Below, piece by piece: positions 5,068 to 58,289 of a stretch of 64,000 nt of DNA. Both the position numbers and the translations under genes were made by a program. The DNA is taken from IMG/VR virus record IMGVR_UViG_3300037089_000505, positions 1-64,000 of that record; one strand, 5' to 3'. Origin of the DNA: a virus. Numbering within the stretch: the first letter of the stretch is position 1; the number at the start of each line of letters is the position of its first letter. Below the pieces are notes generated by a model. The model searched no databases, was not told the origin of the DNA, and was given only the letters and a program-made list of their open reading frames with translations.

Positions 5068-5928
5068 ATGAACATTCAATCGTTGTCGATCGTAGTCCCA
5101 GCTGGTTGCCCCAACAAATGCAAATTTTGCGTAGCCCGAATGAACCACGAAGACTATGTGAATCAGATCGAAGAGAACATGAGGTTCCGCGATCTTTACA
5201 AGAGGGACTACAAAGATCGCCTCGCCTTCGCTCGTGACAACGGCTGCAACATCATGTTCACGGGCAATGGTGAAGCTCTCATGAATCGCCGATTCATGGA
5301 GATGGTCACTGATCTCAACGAGGGGTTGGATAAGCCTTTCAGAATCTTGGAACTCCAGACTTCTGGCGTCACCCTCGATGACGAAGCTCTTCGATGGCTT
5401 CGAAACACAATCAAGGTTTCAAGCCTCTCACTGTCCAGCATCTTTTCAAGCAACAAGAACCAGGAATACAACGTCACTCCCGAGAAGGTCAAGGTAGATA
5501 TCGAACATCTCTGCTCTGAAATCAAACGCTACGATTTCAACCTTCGCCTTTCACTCAACATGACCGATGAATACAACAGCATGGATATTGCGGACATTTT
5601 CAAACAGGTAAAGAAGTTGGGGGCCGATCAGGTCACTTTCCGCAAACTCTACACATCTGGCAATGACACTCCCCAGGATCTTTGGATCAAAGAACATGCA
5701 GTAGAAGAGAGTTTCTGGCCCAGGCTGAATGAGTATGTCCTCAGAAACGGCCGGAAGCTTGAACGACTCCCCTTCGGCGCCATTCGCTATTCAATCAGCG
5801 AAATATCCGCAGTAGTAGACGATGACTGTATGAGCACAGAAACCAAGGAAGACATCAAATACCTCGTCCTTCGCCAGAACTGCAAACTCTACACCAAGTG
5901 GGACGACAAGGGCTCACTTCTTTTCTAG
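5068..5928 (+). CDS. Radical SAM domain protein
   Basis: 286 aa. CPNKCKFC near residues 14-21 is the CxxxCxxC cluster-binding motif, and FTGNGEALMN resembles the GGEP-type SAM-binding strand. Several beta/alpha repeats follow, consistent with a complete core barrel. It is not an obvious QueE, NrdG or anaerobic maturase; the closest general look is the MoaA/PqqE/twitch-type group. It stands alone behind its own class-1 promoter and probably starts a transcript that includes the next two genes. Substrate unknown. This is the second CxxxCxxC protein within 2 kb. Confidence 0.8.
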   Translation: MNIQSLSIVVPAGCPNKCKFCVARMNHEDYVNQIEENMRFRDLYKRDYKDRLAFARDNGCNIMFTGNGEALMNRRFMEMVTDLNEGLDKPFRILELQTSGVTLDDEALRWLRNTIKVSSLSLSSIFSSNKNQEYNVTPEKVKVDIEHLCSEIKRYDFNLRLSLNMTDEYNSMDIADIFKQVKKLGADQVTFRKLYTSGNDTPQDLWIKEHAVEESFWPRLNEYVLRNGRKLERLPFGAIRYSISEISAVVDDDCMSTETKEDIKYLVLRQNCKLYTKWDDKGSLLF

Positions 5929-8844: not shown

Positions 8845-8901
8845 GCCGACTGGTTCTGGTTGCCCTACTCCCCTCAAAATGGGGGTGTGGTACAGAACTT
8901 T

Positions 8902-8940
8902 AGAGCTCCTCTGTACAATCTGAAGAGGAGCTCTATTTTT
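8902..8940 (+). terminator. Strong intrinsic terminator
   Basis: A perfect 11-bp stem AGAGCTCCTCT / AGAGGAGCTCT (8902-8912 and 8924-8934) with an 11-nt loop is followed by ATTTTTAG. It separates the zinc-ribbon unit from the envelope cassette. Confidence 0.8.
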
Positions 8941-8992: not shown

Positions 8993-9616
8993 ATGAACAA
9001 GACGACAACGACAGATGGCCTCTCGGCCGGTATTTTTGGAGGGGTAATTTTCGTAGTGTTCTTCATCTTCTTCCCTATTATTGGGTTGGATGTGGGACTC
9101 TTCCTTTCTATTCTTTTTGCCGTTGTAGCTTTCGGAGCTGGATGGTTTTTTCTTTTCGAAAGGAAGAAGCCAGAAATCCTCGAACGCGAAGCTGGTCTCA
9201 AGGTTGCTCTTGAAGAAGGCGATAAAAACCTCTCTGCAATTCGGGTCCTTGAACGACAAATCAAGAGACCCTCAATTCTCAACAAAATCAAGAACATTGA
9301 AAGTATCTTGCAGAGTATCTTGATCGATCTCAAAAAGGATCCGAACAAGCTTCGCAACGCAAAGCAGCTTCTTGATTACTATGTTCCTACTACAATCAAA
9401 ATCCTCACGAAGTACGTCGAGCTTTCTTCTCAGGGCACCACCAGCGGTGGTATTCAGACCTCTCTTACCAAAGTTGAAACAATGCTTGGGAAAATCGGGG
9501 ACGCCTTTGACGAGCAGCACGCAAGACTCTTGTCAAACGATGTCATGGATCTCGACAATGAACTTGCAACTCTTGACCAGACAATTAACATGGACGGTCT
9601 CACGAAAGACCAGTAA
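8993..9616 (+). CDS. XpaC-like membrane protein (5-bromo-4-chloroindolyl phosphate hydrolysis family)
   Basis: 207 aa. Two TM helices lie at about residues 14-32 and 36-55, followed by a cytoplasmic helical domain. The segment DPNKLRNAKQLLDYYVPTT, ending in TIKILTKYVEL, is the hallmark of the XpaC family, which is usually encoded next to TelA in bacteria. The biochemical role of XpaC is not established. Here it opens a four-gene co-directional cassette with TelA-like, SBP-OmpA and vWA genes. An AGATAATAAG stretch at 8959-8968 could be its promoter, but it lacks the class-1 box. Confidence 0.8.
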   Translation: MNKTTTTDGLSAGIFGGVIFVVFFIFFPIIGLDVGLFLSILFAVVAFGAGWFFLFERKKPEILEREAGLKVALEEGDKNLSAIRVLERQIKRPSILNKIKNIESILQSILIDLKKDPNKLRNAKQLLDYYVPTTIKILTKYVELSSQGTTSGGIQTSLTKVETMLGKIGDAFDEQHARLLSNDVMDLDNELATLDQTINMDGLTKDQ

Positions 9617-9639
9617 AGACTCAAAACAAAGGAGATACT

Positions 9640-10704
9640 ATGAGTGATCAGAACACAGCGCTGACGGCAGTAGACGTCAAGTCTTTGTCGAAGCCAGACC
9701 TTTCAAAGGCCTTGGATTTTGCCAAGGCGATCGATCCGGGTAATACCGGAAACCTGATCCAGTACGGCACTGGAGCTCAGGGTAAGATCGCTACTCTTGC
9801 CGACACGATGCTCTCCCAGATCAGGACAAAGGATACCGGCGAAGTCGGAGAGTCTCTTACAAACCTGATGTTCAAGGTGAAGGACGTGGACGTTTCCGGA
9901 TTCACCAAGGACCACAAGGGCCTCTTTGCCAACATCAAGAACAAGGTCGAGCATTTCATGGCGAAGTATGAGAAGCTCGAAACCCAGATTGACCATATCG
10001 TCGACCAGCTCAACAAGAGCAAGATGCAGATGATCACCGACATCAACATGCTCGACCAGCTCTACAAACAGAACAGCGAGTACATGCACAATCTGGATCT
10101 CTACATCGCCGGCGGCCAGGTCCGTCTCGACGAGCTCAAGACCAAGATCCTTCCACAGATGGAAGAGAAGGCCAAGACTTCCGGCACACCGGAAGATGCC
10201 CAGGAGCTCAGCGACTTCAATAACTTCATCGCTCAGGTAGAGAAGAAGCTGTATGACCTCAAGCTGAGCCGGATGATTTCCATCCAGACGGCACCCCAGG
10301 TCAAGTTGATCCAGGGCGGCGACCAGGTTCTAGTTCAGAAGATCCAGAGCTCAATCATGACGACCATCCCGCTGTGGAAGAACCAGATCGTCATCGCCAT
10401 CTCTCTCTTCAGGCAGAAGAAAGCTTTGGGAGTCGAGAAGGCAGTCACCGATGCCACCAACGACCTGCTCCAGAAGAACTCCGAGCTCCTGCACCAGGGA
10501 ACTGTCGAGGTTGCCAAAGAGAACGAGAGGGGCATCGTAGACATCGAAACCCTCCAGAAGACCAACGAGAACCTCATCGCTACGATCGAAGATTGCATCC
10601 AGATCCAGGAAGAGGGAAAGCAGAAGAGAGCAGCGGCCGAACAGACCCTGACCCAGCTCGAGAGCGATCTCAAGGCTAAGCTCACCCAGAAACGCAGCGC
10701 ATAA
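9640..10704 (+). CDS. telA: TelA-like toxic anion resistance protein
   Basis: 354 aa, close to the usual TelA length. It is soluble and almost entirely helical, with the conserved C-terminal pattern NSELLHQGTVEVAKENERG followed by IVDIETLQKTNENLIATIEDC and a Glu/Arg/Ala-rich last helix. TelA proteins are linked to tellurite and envelope or antimicrobial stress tolerance, mechanism unknown. A GGAG site precedes the ATG. It lies 23 nt behind the XpaC-like gene. GC content and codon use are markedly higher than in the tail module, suggesting acquisition from a host. Confidence 0.88.
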   Translation: MSDQNTALTAVDVKSLSKPDLSKALDFAKAIDPGNTGNLIQYGTGAQGKIATLADTMLSQIRTKDTGEVGESLTNLMFKVKDVDVSGFTKDHKGLFANIKNKVEHFMAKYEKLETQIDHIVDQLNKSKMQMITDINMLDQLYKQNSEYMHNLDLYIAGGQVRLDELKTKILPQMEEKAKTSGTPEDAQELSDFNNFIAQVEKKLYDLKLSRMISIQTAPQVKLIQGGDQVLVQKIQSSIMTTIPLWKNQIVIAISLFRQKKALGVEKAVTDATNDLLQKNSELLHQGTVEVAKENERGIVDIETLQKTNENLIATIEDCIQIQEEGKQKRAAAEQTLTQLESDLKAKLTQKRSA

Positions 10705-10718
10705 TTTCGGTACTATAC

Positions 10719-10756
10719 CTGGCCCTCCCTAGTTGGGGGCCAGATCATTTCTTTTT
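10719..10756 (+). terminator. Hairpin between telA-like and SBP-OmpA genes
   Basis: CTGGCCCTCC / GGGGGCCAG (10719-10743) forms a stable stem with a short loop and is followed after ATCATT by a run of seven T. As it lies inside the cassette it may attenuate rather than end transcription. A GGAGG site for the next gene follows immediately. Confidence 0.7.
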
Positions 10757-10773
10757 TTATAGGAGGACTCTAA

Positions 10774-12459
10774 ATGAAGCGTGGTTTGATTGGTGCTCTG
10801 ATTGTCATCGGAGTCATCGTGATCGGACTGGTACTCAGGTTCGTAGTCCTAAAGGCACCGTCTACCGGCGCTTCTACGACTGCCGCACCCAGTTCAGCGA
10901 GCGGACTCACCTTTGCCAAGGCAGCCCCTGTGACTTTGCCGCCGGTTGGCGGATACAAGCTGTCTACGGTAGATTTGGGAGAGGGACCCGTTCCTCTCAT
11001 CACAATCCCGCTTGACACCTGGGGTGGATACGCTGCTATCTTCGCAGCAAACGGCGGCACAAATCCGAATAAGGAAAGTCTCTTCTATAAGAAGGGGCAC
11101 TTCGCTGTGAAGATCGTTAGCGAAGAGAGTTCGGAAAAACAGCTCCAGGGCTATGCAAGTGGCCAGTGGCCCATCATCTGGACCCAGATGGATGCAATGC
11201 CTCTGTTCCTTGACGCTTACAAAGTTGATAAGCGAGTTGCACCCAAGGCACTCATTCTACTCGACTGGAGTGACGGCGGAGACGGAATTCTGTTCAGGAA
11301 CTCTATCAAGTCGGCGGCCGACCTAAAAGGCAGAATCGTCATTACTTCTAGCAACACGCCATTCAGTTTTATGCTGCTTTGGTATCTGGCTCAGAATGGT
11401 TTGACCGGAAACGATGTCCGGGTTGCTTGGATTGACGATGGTGATAAGGCTCTGAAAACATTCAAGCAGAACAAGGACGTCGCAGCTTGGGTCAGCTGGA
11501 CTCCTTACATCAATGACGCTGCAGATCCGAAGTCGCCCAACTACATTGACGACGCTCATCTGGTCATTTCTTCGAAGGATGCCAATCAAGTTATCGCTGA
11601 CCTCCTCATGGTTAGAAGCGACCTTTTGGCGGACAAGCCCGAAATGATGCAGGCTTTTGTCGAGGCAATCATGGAAGGGACCCAGATGATTCAGGATACG
11701 CAGACACTGAACATCATGGCAACCTTCTACAAACTGAAAACGGCTGCTGAAGCAAAGGATATGCTCACTGATGTGCATATTGCGAACTTCCCGGAGAACA
11801 AGATGTTCTTCGATCCAAACAACTCTATTGGCGCCTACAAGGTCTTCAATCTTGCCCAGGAATATTACAAGCAGCTCGGCGCACTTGGAGCTGATGCCAG
11901 CTATGATCCCGAGCGAATTCTTGCTCCGAAAATCATGGCTGCTTTGGACAAGAAAGGCATCTTCGCCAATCAGAAGAATATGATGGCTAACTCCTTTAAT
12001 AAGAAGGCTGGCCTGGATATCTCTGATCTTGAGAGCGGAAGAGTAGTACTCAATAACACCATGCAGCTCTACTTTGATGCCCAGCAGGTCACCTTTGATC
12101 CCACTAGCCTGAATCCGGCAATCCAGAATAACATGAAGCTTCTAGCCCAGGTCGCAGAACAGACCAAGTTCCTGGCTACTACAGTCGTGAAACTGGATGG
12201 ATACCTGGATACTTCCAAGGTAGCTGAATTCAAAGACCCAGTTAAGCACCACCAGCCTTCGGACTTTATCGAGGCCGCTGCCAGTGCAAAGAATCTTTCC
12301 AAGAAGAGGGCAGACTTCGTCAAGTCAATCCTTGTCAAGAACTTTAAGGTCGACCCCGACCGAATCTACACCTCAGGCAAAGGTTGGGATAATCCACTAT
12401 CCGACACTGAGCCTGACAAGAACCGCCGGGTTGAAGTCCGGTTCCTTTCTCTCGAGTAA
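10774..12459 (+). CDS. Periplasmic substrate-binding (NMT1/SsuA-type) domain fused to OmpA-like peptidoglycan-binding domain
   Basis: 561 aa. Residues 5-28 are an uncleaved-type signal anchor (LIGALIVIGVIVIGLVLRFV). About 60-360 resemble ABC-type nitrate/sulfonate/taurine substrate-binding proteins (for example WGGYAAIFAANGG, IWTQMDAMPLF, and AADLKGRIVI). No permease or ATPase gene is near. The last 65 residues are OmpA-like: NLSKKRADFVKSIL, then DPDRIYTSGKGWDNPLSD and NRRVEVRF. The protein is expected to be tethered to the inner membrane and to bind peptidoglycan, sensing or scavenging a small ligand in the periplasm. This domain fusion inside a phage is unusual. Confidence 0.82.
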   Translation: MKRGLIGALIVIGVIVIGLVLRFVVLKAPSTGASTTAAPSSASGLTFAKAAPVTLPPVGGYKLSTVDLGEGPVPLITIPLDTWGGYAAIFAANGGTNPNKESLFYKKGHFAVKIVSEESSEKQLQGYASGQWPIIWTQMDAMPLFLDAYKVDKRVAPKALILLDWSDGGDGILFRNSIKSAADLKGRIVITSSNTPFSFMLLWYLAQNGLTGNDVRVAWIDDGDKALKTFKQNKDVAAWVSWTPYINDAADPKSPNYIDDAHLVISSKDANQVIADLLMVRSDLLADKPEMMQAFVEAIMEGTQMIQDTQTLNIMATFYKLKTAAEAKDMLTDVHIANFPENKMFFDPNNSIGAYKVFNLAQEYYKQLGALGADASYDPERILAPKIMAALDKKGIFANQKNMMANSFNKKAGLDISDLESGRVVLNNTMQLYFDAQQVTFDPTSLNPAIQNNMKLLAQVAEQTKFLATTVVKLDGYLDTSKVAEFKDPVKHHQPSDFIEAAASAKNLSKKRADFVKSILVKNFKVDPDRIYTSGKGWDNPLSDTEPDKNRRVEVRFLSLE

Positions 12460-12475
12460 GGGAAAGGCAAAGAAC

Positions 12476-13291
12476 ATGAAGAAAGCAATACCAGTTCTTT
12501 TGCTGGTTGCTCTTCTGATGGGATGCGGAGGGTCTTCACCCTCCGCCCCTTCTAATGCAGCAACATCAGAGCAGCACAAGTCTCCATTTGCAGGAACGCC
12601 CGGCTATATCCTGCAGTTTCACAACGACTTCAGATCGGGCATGAATGCAGTCGACGAATCCGGCATCTCCGTGGCCATTGCGATGGATGTGAGCGGATCT
12701 ATGGGAGACGCACCCCAGGCAGGAGGAGAGCCCAAGTATATTCAGGCAACCAAAGCTCTCCGCACTGTTGCAGGCTATCTCGAAGATATGGCTAGTAAAT
12801 TGAAGGATATGAAGATTCGAGTTTGTATCCTGAGATTCAACAACCAGGTCGATCTAGTGCTTCCGCTGACTACCTTAGACGCCGATGGGATTGCAAAGTT
12901 GAATGCAGCAATCAATCCTCGGAATTTCTCCCCCAATGGCGGAACGGCGATCGGAAGAGCCATGGAAATCGAGTCTGAGATTCTTGCCGAATCTGGAACT
13001 GTCTTCAATAGCTTGATGGTAGTGACAGACGGCGAAAACAATGTCAACCCCGACCCAGAAGATGTCATGAAGGCGATTTACAGCAATCGCAACAATATGA
13101 CTACCGAAGACTTTCAAGTCATGACGTCAACACAGATGTCGAGCTTTATCGGCTTTGATGTTCGGTCACGTCAGTTTGAAAGATTCAAAGAGCTGGGAGC
13201 TAGAGTAGCTTCAGCTAACAGTCAGGCCGAAATTGAACAAGGTCTCAAATCGTTCCTCGAGGCTGACATCAAAAACCTGGAAAGCAAGTAA
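12476..13291 (+). CDS. von Willebrand factor A domain lipoprotein
   Basis: 271 aa from ATG 12476; the open frame extends upstream, but the signal peptide fixes the start. Residues 1-17 form a signal with lipobox LLMGC, so Cys18 should be lipidated. The vWA domain begins around residue 60 and contains a complete MIDAS: DVSGS (DxSxS), the Thr of NGGTAIG and the Asp of VVTDGENN. It therefore likely binds a divalent metal and a protein partner at the envelope, plausibly the SBP-OmpA protein or XpaC. It is the last gene of the cassette, followed by a strong terminator. Confidence 0.87.
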   Translation: MKKAIPVLLLVALLMGCGGSSPSAPSNAATSEQHKSPFAGTPGYILQFHNDFRSGMNAVDESGISVAIAMDVSGSMGDAPQAGGEPKYIQATKALRTVAGYLEDMASKLKDMKIRVCILRFNNQVDLVLPLTTLDADGIAKLNAAINPRNFSPNGGTAIGRAMEIESEILAESGTVFNSLMVVTDGENNVNPDPEDVMKAIYSNRNNMTTEDFQVMTSTQMSSFIGFDVRSRQFERFKELGARVASANSQAEIEQGLKSFLEADIKNLESK

Positions 13292-13297
13292 AGAAAC

Positions 13298-13325
13298 AGC
13301 CCCTCTTAACCGAGGGGCTTCTTTG
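13298..13325. terminator. Intrinsic, probably bidirectional terminator between convergent units
   Basis: The stem AGCCCCTC / GAGGGGCT (13298-13305 and 13312-13319), extended by AAGAA / TTCTT, lies between the plus-strand vWA gene and the minus-strand block. T-rich sequence on one side and A-rich on the other allow use in both directions. Confidence 0.8.
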
Positions 13326-13329
13326 TGTG

Positions 13330-13713
13330 TTAAGAAGTAGAATTCGGGGGCGTGCCGCTATAAGCTGAAGAAGTATAATTGCCGCCGCCCGTTAGCTGAT
13401 TATAGACACTGCTTGTAATGGCATAAGATCCTGTTGTAGTGGTTATTGGAAGTGCTGTCGTAGTAGCAGTAGTTGTAGTGTTACCATATGTTGTGTAATA
13501 AGCCATCATCTGTTTCCAGAACTTGCAACACCTCTTTTTTGGAAGCGTCCCTAAGACGTCGCATGTTTCTACATATTCAATCTTTGCTGTGGCACTGTAA
13601 TTAGAGCCAGCGCTAATGATCACATTCGTGGCTGTAGTTGGATCACAGAGTTTGAACTTACAATTATCGCAACTTCGTCCTTTCAACATATTTTTGACTG
13701 TTTCTTTGTCCAT
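13330..13713 (-). CDS. Cys-rich mini-protein fused to Thr/Ser-rich tail
   Basis: 127 aa. Residues 1 to about 68 are the family module (DKETVKNMLKGRSCDNC, an ETCDV Cys and RCCKFW). The remaining 60 residues are low-complexity Thr/Ser/Gly/Tyr (runs of TTTT), unlike other members. The tail may be surface-exposed or disordered. It ends the minus-strand operon. Confidence 0.55.
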   Translation of the reverse strand: MDKETVKNMLKGRSCDNCKFKLCDPTTATNVIISAGSNYSATAKIEYVETCDVLGTLPKKRCCKFWKQMMAYYTTYGNTTTTATTTALPITTTTGSYAITSSVYNQLTGGGNYTSSAYSGTPPNSTS

Positions 13714-14138: not shown

Positions 14139-14617
14139 TTTATTTCTCCGTTAAGATCTATTAGAATATCTGACGTAGATGTCGTTGCGCCAGAAGCATT
14201 GTAGCTTGTAGTGCTAGTGATGGCGGTAGTGTTGGTTATTTGTGTCAAATTAATAGAATTACTAGAGGAAGAATAATTGACAGCCCAATTGTTAGCAGAT
14301 GGTATAGAAACTGAATTCACGAAAGCAGTATTGACTGACATTACAGTGGCGCTAGCCGAAGGAGAAGAAACTGCTAGCTGCAGAAGTCTCTCAAGTTCCT
14401 GAATCGCGATGTCTTGGTATTTGTTTTTGAAACTTTGCCAAACGTCTTTATCGATTTGAACTATACTTGTTTCACTCGATGTAGGTTTTTGATAATTCGC
14501 CATGATTTTTTCAAGAGTGTCTGAAGCATTCGGTGCCTTCTCTCTAAACTCTTCCCAAATTTTTTTATTAACTGATATCCCGGGTTTAATTCTTTTAGAT
14601 ATTAATGATCTTGCCAT
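14135..14617 (-). CDS. Protein with two ribbon-helix-helix-like segments and Ser/Thr-rich tail
   Basis: 160 aa, ATGA overlap with the next gene. ISVNKKIWEEFREKA (about 14-28) and VQIDKDVWQSFKNKY (about 52-66) each look like the strand and first helix of an RHH/MetJ-Arc fold and are followed by a second helix, so a DNA-binding role is possible. From about residue 85 the sequence is Ser/Thr/Asn/Ala low complexity. It could be a repressor with an appended tail. Confidence 0.5.
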   Translation of the reverse strand: MARSLISKRIKPGISVNKKIWEEFREKAPNASDTLEKIMANYQKPTSSETSIVQIDKDVWQSFKNKYQDIAIQELERLLQLAVSSPSASATVMSVNTAFVNSVSIPSANNWAVNYSSSSNSINLTQITNTTAITSTTSYNASGATTSTSDILIDLNGEIK

Positions 14618-14936
14618 ATCTATCCGTCCTTATCCTAACAAATTTAAAATCAGGATATATTTTTTCAATTTCAATCTGTCTGATTTTATCTTTTTCTTTG
14701 AGTTGATCGTGATAATAGTGAGTTGTTTCGTCCCATTCTATTATTAACTTTTTCTCAAAATTAATGTAATCGACCCAATAACCTAACTCTTCAATGTAAT
14801 GCTCACCTCCATTAGTTCCATATTTACCAACGGTTTTATTTTCTTTATCAAATTTTTCAAACCACTCACAAGAGTTTAGATTGAAAGATGGACAAATTCC
14901 TTGAGCCTTGAGTCTTCCAGAAAAATCTTGTCTCAT
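14595..14936 (-). CDS. Split homing endonuclease, catalytic half
   Basis: 113 aa. CEWFEKFDKENKTVGKYGTN and GYWVDYINFEKKLIIEWDE align closely with the C-terminal domain of the intact protein at 19630-20451. The conserved D-Y-I-N...I-I-E-W-(D/N)-E block resembles the catalytic strand of Vsr/PD-(D/E)xK nucleases. It is joined to the upstream zinc-finger half by an ATGA overlap, so two polypeptides replace one. Confidence 0.6.
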   Translation of the reverse strand: MRQDFSGRLKAQGICPSFNLNSCEWFEKFDKENKTVGKYGTNGGEHYIEELGYWVDYINFEKKLIIEWDETTHYYHDQLKEKDKIRQIEIEKIYPDFKFVRIRTDRYGKIINI

Positions 14937-19629: not shown

Positions 19630-20451
19630 ATGTTTTGTAAAATATGTGGGAAAGAATTTCCTAACAAAAAAACTCGGCGGGGCCCCAAAAAATATTGCTC
19701 TGTACAATGTACGAATAAGGATCGCAAAAACATTGGAAGCAGAAAACCAGGTAGATATAAAAAAGTTTTAGTTGAGCGCCATCATACTTGTATTTATTGT
19801 AAGAAAGACTTTTCTAATAGACGAAAGAAAGCTAAATACTGCTCTAAGCGATGTAGCGAGTTGGGCTGGAAAAAAAATAAACGCTCCTGCCCAATTTGTG
19901 GTAAGTCTGTAGTACGTAAACACGGCGAATCAACAACTCACGACAACAAACAAATTTATTGTAGTGTAGAATGTCGAGGTATCGCCGAACGAAAACCAAG
20001 ACCTAACTGTTTAATCTGTGGCGGTGAATGTAAACACTGGTATAGTAGAACTTGCTCTATGAATTGTCAAGCTGAATTCAAGCGCATATTCCACTTACTA
20101 CGAATTAAGAAGGCTTTGGCCATCGGCGTCCAGTTAAATCCCTTCTACAACTTAGACGCTTGCAAATGGTTTGAGCAGTATGATAAAGACAACAACACGA
20201 TCGGTAAATACGCAACTAATGGTGGCGAAGAGTTTGTAAAAGGCTATTGGCTTGATTATATCAATCATGACAAAAAGCTAATTATCGAATGGAACGAGAA
20301 GCAGCACTACAACAAAGATGGATCTCTTAGAAAAAGAGATATAAGAAAAAGAGACGACATTCTAAAGTCTTTTCCAGCCTACGAGTTCTGGTCTATCAAA
20401 GAAGACACAATGCAAATCGACAAGATAATTCTTAATGGCGTGGTTAGTTAA
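19630..20451 (+). CDS. Zinc-finger homing endonuclease, Vsr/PD-(D/E)xK-like
   Basis: 273 aa. Four finger motifs of the form CxxC...YC(S)xxC occupy residues 2 to about 140 (CKICGKEF, CIYCKKDF, CPICGKS and CLICGGE). The C-terminal domain has GYWLDYINHDKKLIIEWNE and a basic helix, matching the split pair at 14595-15202. It is likely a free-standing homing endonuclease that marks the left edge of the mini-gene island. Confidence 0.7.
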   Translation: MFCKICGKEFPNKKTRRGPKKYCSVQCTNKDRKNIGSRKPGRYKKVLVERHHTCIYCKKDFSNRRKKAKYCSKRCSELGWKKNKRSCPICGKSVVRKHGESTTHDNKQIYCSVECRGIAERKPRPNCLICGGECKHWYSRTCSMNCQAEFKRIFHLLRIKKALAIGVQLNPFYNLDACKWFEQYDKDNNTIGKYATNGGEEFVKGYWLDYINHDKKLIIEWNEKQHYNKDGSLRKRDIRKRDDILKSFPAYEFWSIKEDTMQIDKIILNGVVS

Positions 20452-53663: not shown

Positions 53664-54113
53664 ATGAACTACTTTCAGAGACTCTGGACAAAAACGCCAC
53701 TCAGTAACAAGATCACGCTGGCTGTTTTGGCCCTTGTCATAGATCTCATTCCGATTTTCTGTCTTTGTTGGAGTCTATCACTTCCGCCGGGATCGAAGTA
53801 CCAAACTTTTGACATTGTAGTCAGTGTAATTGCCGTTCCCCTCTTTCTCCTTGGAATCCCATTTGCCTTGTCTGCCCAGGATCTAGCTCAGATTGAAAAG
53901 CGAGAGAAGGAAGTGGCCAAAGATCAGCAAGACTTTCTCAACGATGAAGACGGCTACTTGGAAGGCATGGCCGAAAGAGTCATCACAGAGATTGAATTTG
54001 ATATGGAGATTAAGGAGCTCACTGATTTACAAAAACGGAAATTCGTCAACAAGATTCTTTACAAAATAGTTTCACACTTCAGGGGTTTAGGAAAGGAGAA
54101 GGAAAAGATATGA
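53664..54113 (+). CDS. Two-TM membrane protein
   Basis: 149 aa from ATG 53664 (GTG 53658 also possible). TM helices at about 17-40 (ITLAVLALVIDLIPIFCLCW) and 51-71, then a cytoplasmic helical tail of 75 residues. It precedes nadE by a 4-nt overlap. Unrecognised. Confidence 0.6.
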   Translation: MNYFQRLWTKTPLSNKITLAVLALVIDLIPIFCLCWSLSLPPGSKYQTFDIVVSVIAVPLFLLGIPFALSAQDLAQIEKREKEVAKDQQDFLNDEDGYLEGMAERVITEIEFDMEIKELTDLQKRKFVNKILYKIVSHFRGLGKEKEKI

Positions 54114-54940
54114 TCAAGGATTTCACGGGCCTCATCAACGCGACGACCATCAGCATCAGGAACTTTACTGACTGTGCGGTCCTCGGACTCTCAGGCGGAG
54201 CTGACTCGACGCTAGTGGCCATTCTTTCCGCCATGGCTTTGGGCCAGGAAAACGTCTACGGAATCGGACTACCCTACAGCGATCTTGACAAGCAGACTTT
54301 CAATTCACGGTCGGCACGGATCGCCCACAGGCTGAACATTCACTACCTGGAAATCCCCATCAAGAAGCAGGTCGACGCTATCATCGAGTCGCTCAAGTGG
54401 GATGATGACCATCCCATGGAGCTCGATGCCATTCAGTTGGGCAACATCAAAGCTCGAGTCCGAATGGCCACGCTCTACGGCCTGAACGGAGCCTTCTCGG
54501 ATGAAGGAACTCGGTACCGTGTCATAGGCACTGGGAACTTCAGCGAGGACTTCATCGGCTACGATACCAAGGGTGGCGATGCTCTTGCCGACATCTTCCC
54601 TATCGGTTGTCTTTTCAAGAGTGAGGTCTATCAGCTTCTCGATCATTTCATTTCTCAAGGATTCATCGAAGAAGACCTTGTCGACCGGGTTCCGAGCGCC
54701 GGTCTCTGGGAAGGCCAGACAGACGAGGGTGAGCTCGGTCATACCTACGCTGACATGGAACCCAAGATCGTCCAGCTCGTCGATGCTTACAAGGATGAGA
54801 TTGGAGAAGTCCAGACTGATGCTCTGACAGAAGATGTCCGCCTGAGACACCTTGCCAACAAGCACAAGCACATGGCTCCTCCGGTTCTCAACCTTCGCAA
54901 GTTCTGCGAATGGAACGATCCGACTGGCTATTTCGCATAA
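54110..54940 (+). CDS. nadE: NAD synthetase
   Basis: 276 aa. SGGADSTL is the ATP-pyrophosphatase P-loop. Then NIKARVRMATLYG, GTGNFSEDFIGYDTKGGD and PSAGLWEGQTDEGELG match ammonia-dependent NadE, which converts nicotinic acid adenine dinucleotide to NAD+ in the cytoplasm. Full length for a single-domain NadE; no glutaminase domain. Located 2.1 kb before a WGR-PARP gene, so the phage may replenish NAD+ consumed by ADP-ribosylation or by host NAD-depleting defence. Confidence 0.9.
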   Translation: MIKDFTGLINATTISIRNFTDCAVLGLSGGADSTLVAILSAMALGQENVYGIGLPYSDLDKQTFNSRSARIAHRLNIHYLEIPIKKQVDAIIESLKWDDDHPMELDAIQLGNIKARVRMATLYGLNGAFSDEGTRYRVIGTGNFSEDFIGYDTKGGDALADIFPIGCLFKSEVYQLLDHFISQGFIEEDLVDRVPSAGLWEGQTDEGELGHTYADMEPKIVQLVDAYKDEIGEVQTDALTEDVRLRHLANKHKHMAPPVLNLRKFCEWNDPTGYFA

Positions 54941-57056: not shown

Positions 57057-58289
57057 ATGGAAACACGCGGAGATAAGTCACTCATCATGGTCACCGCTGA
57101 CAACAACAACAAATTTTACAAGATGCATGATAATACCGATGGAACCTTCACGGTGAAATACGGTCGGGTCGGAGTCACTGAGACGACTATGAACTACCCC
57201 ATAAAGAAATGGGATTCCATTTACCGAGACAAGACCGGCAAAGGTTATCGGGATGTTACGGAGCTTCGGGCCGAGAAGACGGTCAACAACAGCAATGGCA
57301 ACACCCCGAGTTTCGCCGACATCAAAATCGCCCAGATCAAATCTCTGGTCGCCACTCTCCAGTCCTATGCGAAGAAATCAGTCACCGAGAACTATACGGT
57401 CACTTCTGAGGCAGTCACTCAAGCCCAGGTCGACGAAGCACAGTCTGTTTTGGACCGGATCACCACTCTGAAGGTCACCGATACCAAGATCCTCAATGAC
57501 ACCCTCCTGGAACTCTACAAGGTCATTCCCCGAAGAATGGCCAACGTCAAGCATCACCTCTTCGGTCTGGAAGAGGGACTTGATAGCAAGCCGGACATTT
57601 TCAAAAGGACAATTGAGACCGAGCAAGCCACTCTGGACGTTATGAGAGGCCAGGTTTCTACTAACACCAAGACCAAGGACGTTTCTAACAAAGCCAACCA
57701 GACACTGCTCGAGGCCATGGGGCTGGAAATCGTTCCCATCGAAGATTCGGATCGGCAGATCATTCTCAAACTTCTCGGCCCCAACAGCCGGCAATTCCGT
57801 TCGGCCTTCAAGGTGATCAACGTCAAGACTCAAGGCCTCTTTGATAAGAAACTGGTCGAAGTCACCAACAAATCCACCAACCTTTTTTGGCACGGCTCTC
57901 GCAACGAAAACTGGTGGTCCATTCTGGACTCCGGCCTCATGATCAGGCCTTCCAACGCCATCTACACTGGGTCCATGTTCGGAGATGGAATCTACTTCGC
58001 CGATAAGGCTCAGAAGTCTATCGGCTACACTTCTCTTCGGGGAAGCTACTGGGCCGGTGGCGGAAGCAACAAGGCTTACCTGGCAGTCTTCAATGTCCAT
58101 ACCGGAAACTGGCTCAAAGCTCAGAGGCACGAGTCCTGGATGTACGAACTGACTGAGAAGAAGCTGAAAGCCCGGGGCGCTTACGATTCTTTCTTCGCTC
58201 TCGACGGAGCTGATCTCCGGAACAATGAATACATCGTCTACAACAAGGCACAGTGCACCGTCCAGTACCTGGTCGAGATCGGAGACTAA
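57057..58289 (+). CDS. WGR-PARP: poly(ADP-ribose) polymerase-like protein
   Basis: 410 aa. Residues 1-75 form a WGR domain (FYKMHDNTDGTFTVKYGRVG). The middle 90-260 is helical, as in the PARP regulatory domain. The catalytic part has LFWHGSRNENWWSIL (His), MFGDGIYFADKAQKSIGYT (Tyr) and LRNNEYIVYN (Glu), the H-Y-E triad of true poly-ADP-ribosylating PARPs. It would use NAD+ to modify proteins or nucleic acid, probably triggered by DNA ends via WGR. It has its own leaderless class-1 promoter. Confidence 0.88.
   Translation: METRGDKSLIMVTADNNNKFYKMHDNTDGTFTVKYGRVGVTETTMNYPIKKWDSIYRDKTGKGYRDVTELRAEKTVNNSNGNTPSFADIKIAQIKSLVATLQSYAKKSVTENYTVTSEAVTQAQVDEAQSVLDRITTLKVTDTKILNDTLLELYKVIPRRMANVKHHLFGLEEGLDSKPDIFKRTIETEQATLDVMRGQVSTNTKTKDVSNKANQTLLEAMGLEIVPIEDSDRQIILKLLGPNSRQFRSAFKVINVKTQGLFDKKLVEVTNKSTNLFWHGSRNENWWSILDSGLMIRPSNAIYTGSMFGDGIYFADKAQKSIGYTSLRGSYWAGGGSNKAYLAVFNVHTGNWLKAQRHESWMYELTEKKLKARGAYDSFFALDGADLRNNEYIVYNKAQCTVQYLVEIGD

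What the first reader, a model, noticed from the sequence alone, without database searches (positions are those of the whole stretch)
8993..13291. Phage-borne envelope cassette: XpaC-like, TelA-like, SBP-OmpA fusion and vWA lipoprotein
Four adjacent genes combine a membrane XpaC-like protein, cytoplasmic TelA-like protein, a periplasmic substrate-binding domain fused to an OmpA peptidoglycan-binding domain, and a lipoprotein with a complete MIDAS. No transporter ATPase or permease is present, so this is not an ABC importer. TelA and XpaC are known as neighbours in bacteria and linked to anion and envelope stress. The SBP-OmpA plus vWA partners suggest a trans-envelope sensing or stabilising complex. 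A lytic-type phage carrying it could protect the infected cell, block superinfection, or counter a membrane-targeting defence. Strong terminators on both sides and a higher GC content suggest it moved as a unit.
Basis: partly seen in the sequence, partly recalled or inferred. Interest (0 to 1): 0.85.

Follow-up and report, generated by a model that had tools for sequence, protein, structure and literature searches.

The report
Phage-carried bacterial envelope-stress gene cassette
A large, probably spirochaete-infecting phage carries four envelope genes, also found in two other, very different phages and, together with an ABC transporter, in some spirochaete chromosomes; this suggests that phages keep a stripped-down copy of a host cell-envelope device, whose function is still untested.

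Summary
XpaC (8993-9616), TelA (9640-10704), an SBP-OmpA fusion (10774-12459) and a vWA lipoprotein (true start 12476, end 13291) are intact, with peptidoglycan-binding and MIDAS residues conserved.

The cassette is a real unit. Two other IMG/VR phages (114 and 178 kb) carry the same four genes, same order and strand, in unrelated surroundings. TelA and SBP-OmpA are the two most conserved proteins shared between these phages. Selection is purifying where it could be estimated.

Spirochaetota chromosomes carry the SBP-OmpA+vWA pair (7 genomes), XpaC-TelA pairs and, in two genomes, one seven-gene operon: SBP, SBP-OmpA, permease, ATPase, vWA, XpaC, TelA. Trees place phage SBP-OmpA beside the pair-only clade and phage TelA beside a treponeme, so the cassette looks assembled from two spirochaete gene pairs. 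No importer permease was found in the three phage records. Lak and two other huge phages match two further SBP-OmpA operon types with ABC genes.

Most likely: a membrane-to-peptidoglycan envelope-stress module, ABC-derived but not an importer on its own. The function is inferred; no published description of the combination was found in the open-access library.

The parts
8901..8935 (+). hairpin followed by a T-run, likely terminator of the upstream gene
   Evidence: fold -20.9 kcal/mol, z -3.8
8993..9616 (+). XpaC-like protein, 207 aa: N-terminal hydrophobic stretch, then a likely cytoplasmic helical part
   Evidence: PF10112 E=6.5e-26; aligned with 8 relatives
9640..10704 (+). TelA, 354 aa, mostly helical
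   Evidence: PF05816 E=2.8e-116; phage clade beside a treponeme TelA inside a mostly Spirochaetota group; structure model too poor to interpret
10719..10743 (+). internal terminator-like hairpin between TelA and SBP-OmpA
10774..12459 (+). SBP-OmpA, 561 aa: N-terminal membrane helix, NMT1/TauA-type binding domain, C-terminal OmpA domain
   Evidence: Pfam; model pLDDT 81.5; best PDB match TauA, TMt 0.75
10780..10848 (+). predicted membrane anchor helix, residues 3-25 of SBP-OmpA
12061..12447 (+). OmpA peptidoglycan-binding domain, with D479 and R512 conserved
   Evidence: both invariant in 14 relatives
12476..13291 (+). vWA lipoprotein, 271 aa, lipobox LMGC with Cys17
   Evidence: Pfam VWA_2; N-termini compared
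12686..13030 (+). MIDAS of the vWA domain: D71, S73, S75, T157, D185
   Evidence: invariant in 8 relatives
13298..13319 (+). terminator-like hairpin downstream of the cassette
   Evidence: z -4.7 for 13288-13330

Best explanation
The cassette is a host-derived (Spirochaetota) envelope-stress module that phages maintain and exchange as a block. It joins two gene pairs. XpaC-TelA is a membrane protein plus a helical cytoplasmic partner, of the kind induced by envelope stress. SBP-OmpA + vWA is an inner-membrane-anchored solute-binding protein whose OmpA domain holds peptidoglycan, with a metal-site (MIDAS) partner. In two Spirochaetota the same four proteins are encoded with an SBP, a TauC-like permease and an ABC ATPase, so they are probably accessory parts of, or derived from, an ABC-linked envelope device. 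The phages carry only the non-transporter part. Proposed working (inferred): SBP-OmpA ties the inner membrane to the peptidoglycan and binds a small ligand; vWA docks through its metal site; the state is passed to XpaC in the membrane, and TelA forms a scaffold on the inner face, keeping the membrane sealed and energised during infection or under membrane-active attack.
For: Same four genes, order and strand in three phages with otherwise different neighbourhoods. TelA and SBP-OmpA rank first and second in identity among reciprocal best hits in all three comparisons, against medians of 40-46%. dN/dS 0.05-0.13 where it could be estimated. Two Spirochaetota have SBP, SBP-OmpA, permease, ATPase, vWA, XpaC, TelA in one row. 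XpaC lies next to another SBP-OmpA/vWA operon type in four genomes. Functional residues intact. Trees. Literature: xpaC-yaaN is in the core sigma-W regulon (PMC3498285); the XpaC-like gene and telA1 rise in the study of the CesSR stress sensor (PMC3139573); a Listeria TelA mutant is more sensitive to nisin and tellurite (Collins 2010, cited in PMC12791056).
Against: No contact between the proteins was predicted or measured. An internal terminator-like hairpin separates the two pairs. Seven Spirochaetota contigs carry the SBP-OmpA+vWA pair without XpaC-TelA beside it, and TelA presence in SBP-OmpA genomes is not significantly enriched (4 of 11 against 67 of 392, P=0.10). The ligand is unknown. 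Protection during infection is inference.
Confidence: 0.45

Rival explanations
1. Superinfection exclusion or competition factor: the cassette alters the envelope so that other phages or toxic peptides cannot enter.
For: Iyer et al. 2021 (PMC7824862) propose this for TelA and Ter genes in jumbo phages; the cassette is more conserved than the phage backbones.
Against: No direct evidence; only TelA of the Ter components was found in the cassette; no meaningful PADLOC match. It overlaps with the best explanation, since sealing the envelope could also exclude phages.
Confidence: 0.25
2. Auxiliary uptake: SBP-OmpA and vWA work with a host-encoded permease and ATPase to bring in a nutrient such as a sulfonate or other small anion during infection.
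For: SBP domain closest to TauA/SsuA; homologous operons contain permease and ATPase; several huge phages keep the transporter genes.
Against: All three phages of this type lack a detectable permease, as do the seven pair-only Spirochaetota neighbourhoods; no role of XpaC-TelA in uptake is known to me.
Confidence: 0.15
3. Two unrelated accessory gene pairs that happen to sit side by side, each useful alone.
For: Internal terminator-like hairpin; the pairs occur separately in bacteria and have different nearest relatives; XpaC and TelA diverged very unequally between two of the phages.
Against: The combination is conserved across three diverged phages and occurs in a different gene order with ABC genes in two Spirochaetota.
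Confidence: 0.15

Closest known systems
XpaC-TelA (xpaC-yaaN) envelope-stress pair of Firmicutes and Spirochaetota
   Same: Same two families in the same order; phage TelA is nearest to Spirochaetota TelA
   Different: Here joined to SBP-OmpA and vWA and carried by phages
TauABC/SsuABC-type ABC importers
   Same: The SBP domain is of the TauA/SsuA type; homologous bacterial operons have a TauC-like permease and an ABC ATPase
   Different: SBP is membrane-anchored and fused to OmpA; no permease found in the three phage records
Ter/TelA systems in jumbo phages (Iyer et al. 2021, PMC7824862)
   Same: Phage-borne TelA; proposed role in conflict or stress
   Different: That paper's text does not mention OmpA, and its vWA proteins are TerF or a MoxR partner, not an SBP-OmpA neighbour
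SBP-OmpA operons with ABC genes in huge phages (Lak, LR756501, LR756511, phage G)
   Same: Homologous SBP-OmpA proteins; LR756511 also has vWA
   Different: ABC transporter genes are included, XpaC-TelA are not adjacent, and SBP-OmpA identity to the window is only 22-23%

Membership tests
XpaC-TelA pair | PF10112 and PF05816 genes adjacent, same strand | tested here: met
   both above Pfam cut-offs
XpaC-TelA pair | induction by envelope stress | not testable with these tools
   known for Firmicutes from PMC3498285 and PMC3139573 only
TauABC-type ABC importer | substrate-binding protein of the family | tested here: met
   NCBIfam scores lie below the curated cut-offs, so only the fold and general family are met, not the substrate class
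TauABC-type ABC importer | permease (BPD_transp_1) | tested here: not met
   no match in the three phage records; the records may be incomplete
TauABC-type ABC importer | ABC ATPase | tested here: inconclusive
   absent from the cassette; whole records not searched with PF00005
OmpA-type peptidoglycan anchor | Asp and Arg of the diaminopimelate-binding site | tested here: met
   D479 and R512 invariant in 14 proteins; assignment to the known site is from memory
vWA domain with MIDAS | DxSxS, T and D metal-site residues | tested here: met
Ter system | TerC/TerD and associated genes with TelA | tested here: inconclusive
   none in the cassette; the whole record was not searched for them

The most novel reading that the evidence does not exclude
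SBP-OmpA, vWA, XpaC and TelA make up an undescribed trans-envelope complex, transporter-coupled in bacteria, that diverse large phages have taken up in stripped form (with a lipid anchor in place of a membrane helix on vWA) to control the infected cell's envelope.
Probability: 0.35. Interest if true: 0.8.

Novelty: new variant of a known kind. Interest (0 to 1): 0.6.

Why it matters
TelA and XpaC are widespread but mechanistically unexplained. This gives them candidate periplasmic partners and a minimal four-gene set that phages keep under selection, so their role in envelope stress can be tested directly. It also shows that several huge phages carry distinct SBP-OmpA operons with bacterial counterparts.

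Tried and rejected
First genome-contig scan with SBP-OmpA found no relatives. Plasmid hits were SBPs matching at most 58% of the query, none over most of it. Bacillota: 299 genomes gave SBP-like matches but no full-length SBP-OmpA. TelA structure model too poor to interpret (pLDDT 55). Two proteins in phage LR756511 tested as XpaC/TelA relatives: no. No defence-system model gave a meaningful hit. Literature searches found no paper on the four-protein combination. Phage G lacks detectable relatives of the two helper proteins of the Lak-type operon. Genome-wide co-occurrence statistic not significant.

Full report
What is there. XpaC, TelA, NMT1+OmpA and vWA domains all pass Pfam cut-offs. The SBP-OmpA model (pLDDT 81.5) shows an N-terminal membrane helix, a two-lobed binding protein closest to TauA, and a C-terminal OmpA domain. 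The core motifs are invariant among 14 SBP-OmpA and 8 vWA proteins. Hairpins lie before, after and inside the cassette.

A conserved phage block. The window belongs to a 143,947-base virus record. Contig 3300037086_000398 (114 kb) carries the same four genes at 91% (TelA), 79% (SBP-OmpA), 66% (vWA) and about 58% (XpaC) identity, and none of the rest of its 17.7-kb locus aligns at DNA level. Contig 3300020048_000018 (178 kb) carries them again at 62, 61, 48 and 40%. TelA and SBP-OmpA are the two most similar proteins shared in every pair of phages; the tail sheath is only 34% identical between the first two. dN/dS is 0.05-0.13 for TelA, SBP-OmpA and vWA between the two closest phages; other comparisons are saturated at silent sites. 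The cassette therefore looks selected and exchanged. In all three phages vWA has a lipobox, whereas the readable Spirochaetota vWA N-termini mostly look like membrane helices.

The bacterial counterpart. The best TelA hits in bacteria are Spirochaetota. Eleven of 392 Spirochaetota genomes carry a full-length SBP-OmpA of this type. Seven have vWA directly beside it. Two (G026, G325) have SBP, SBP-OmpA, permease, ATPase, vWA, XpaC, TelA in one row. Phage SBP-OmpA forms one clade (100/99) sister to the seven pair-only genomes. Phage TelA forms one clade (99/95) sister to a treponeme TelA that has XpaC beside it but no SBP-OmpA match in its genome. The simplest reading is that the phage cassette was assembled from two spirochaete pairs, and that the pairs were also combined, separately, in the seven-gene operon. 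Genome-wide, however, TelA is not significantly enriched in SBP-OmpA genomes (4 of 11 against 67 of 392, P=0.10).

Other operon types. A second type (two coiled-coil proteins, SBP-OmpA, permease, ATPase) occurs in four Spirochaetota genomes (one contig is cut before the ATPase) and in the same order in Lak phage and the 735-kb phage LR756501. A third (SBP, permease, ATPase, SBP-OmpA, vWA, SBP-OmpA, with XpaC next to it in four genomes) resembles the 595-kb phage LR756511, where SBP, permease and ATPase come last instead of first. Phage G has permease and ATPase near two SBP-OmpA genes. Sinorhizobium phage Phosso has a YqiJ-like protein, flotillin, XpaC and TelA in a row. Whether Spirochaetota are the source for these other phages is not known, because other phyla apart from Bacillota were not sampled.

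Function. Shown by others: XpaC and TelA belong to envelope-stress regulons in Firmicutes, and a Listeria TelA mutant is more sensitive to nisin and tellurite. Proposed by others: TelA and Ter genes in jumbo phages act against superinfection. Inferred here: SBP-OmpA tethers membrane to peptidoglycan and senses a ligand, vWA docks by its metal site, and XpaC-TelA acts at the membrane. I give this 0.45; the superinfection reading overlaps with it.

Limits. Virus records may be incomplete; the ATPase was not searched for across the whole records; physical interaction is untested; host assignment is by gene relatedness only; the literature search covers open-access papers only.

Noticed in passing
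window 57057-58289: Phage-encoded WGR + PARP protein (PF00644 E=5.9e-23, PF05406), listed in PHROGs as 'polymerase'.
   Followed up: partly
window 54110-54940 and the same record at 93225-94412 (beyond the window): NAD synthase and nicotinate phosphoribosyltransferase on the same phage, an NAD salvage set alongside a PARP; the NAPRTase is 55% identical to one in the 178-kb phage.
   Followed up: partly
L005 758-3295: 845-aa Major Vault Protein shoulder / SPFH-domain protein about 2.9 kb upstream of the cassette in the second phage; no Band_7 match in the other two phage records.
   Followed up: partly
the window's record at 107893-109032 (beyond the window): Pyridoxal-dependent decarboxylase of the ornithine/DAP/arginine decarboxylase family.
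   Followed up: no
window 9640-10704 against 8993-9616: Between the first two phages TelA is 91% identical and dS is 0.98, while the adjacent XpaC is 59% identical and saturated at silent sites, suggesting recombination inside the cassette.
   Followed up: no
window 14595-14936 (-) and 19630-20451 (+): Two related ORFs (49-60% over the shared part), one weakly like DUF559.
   Followed up: no
window 5068-5928: Radical SAM protein (PF04055 E=1.1e-09).
   Followed up: no
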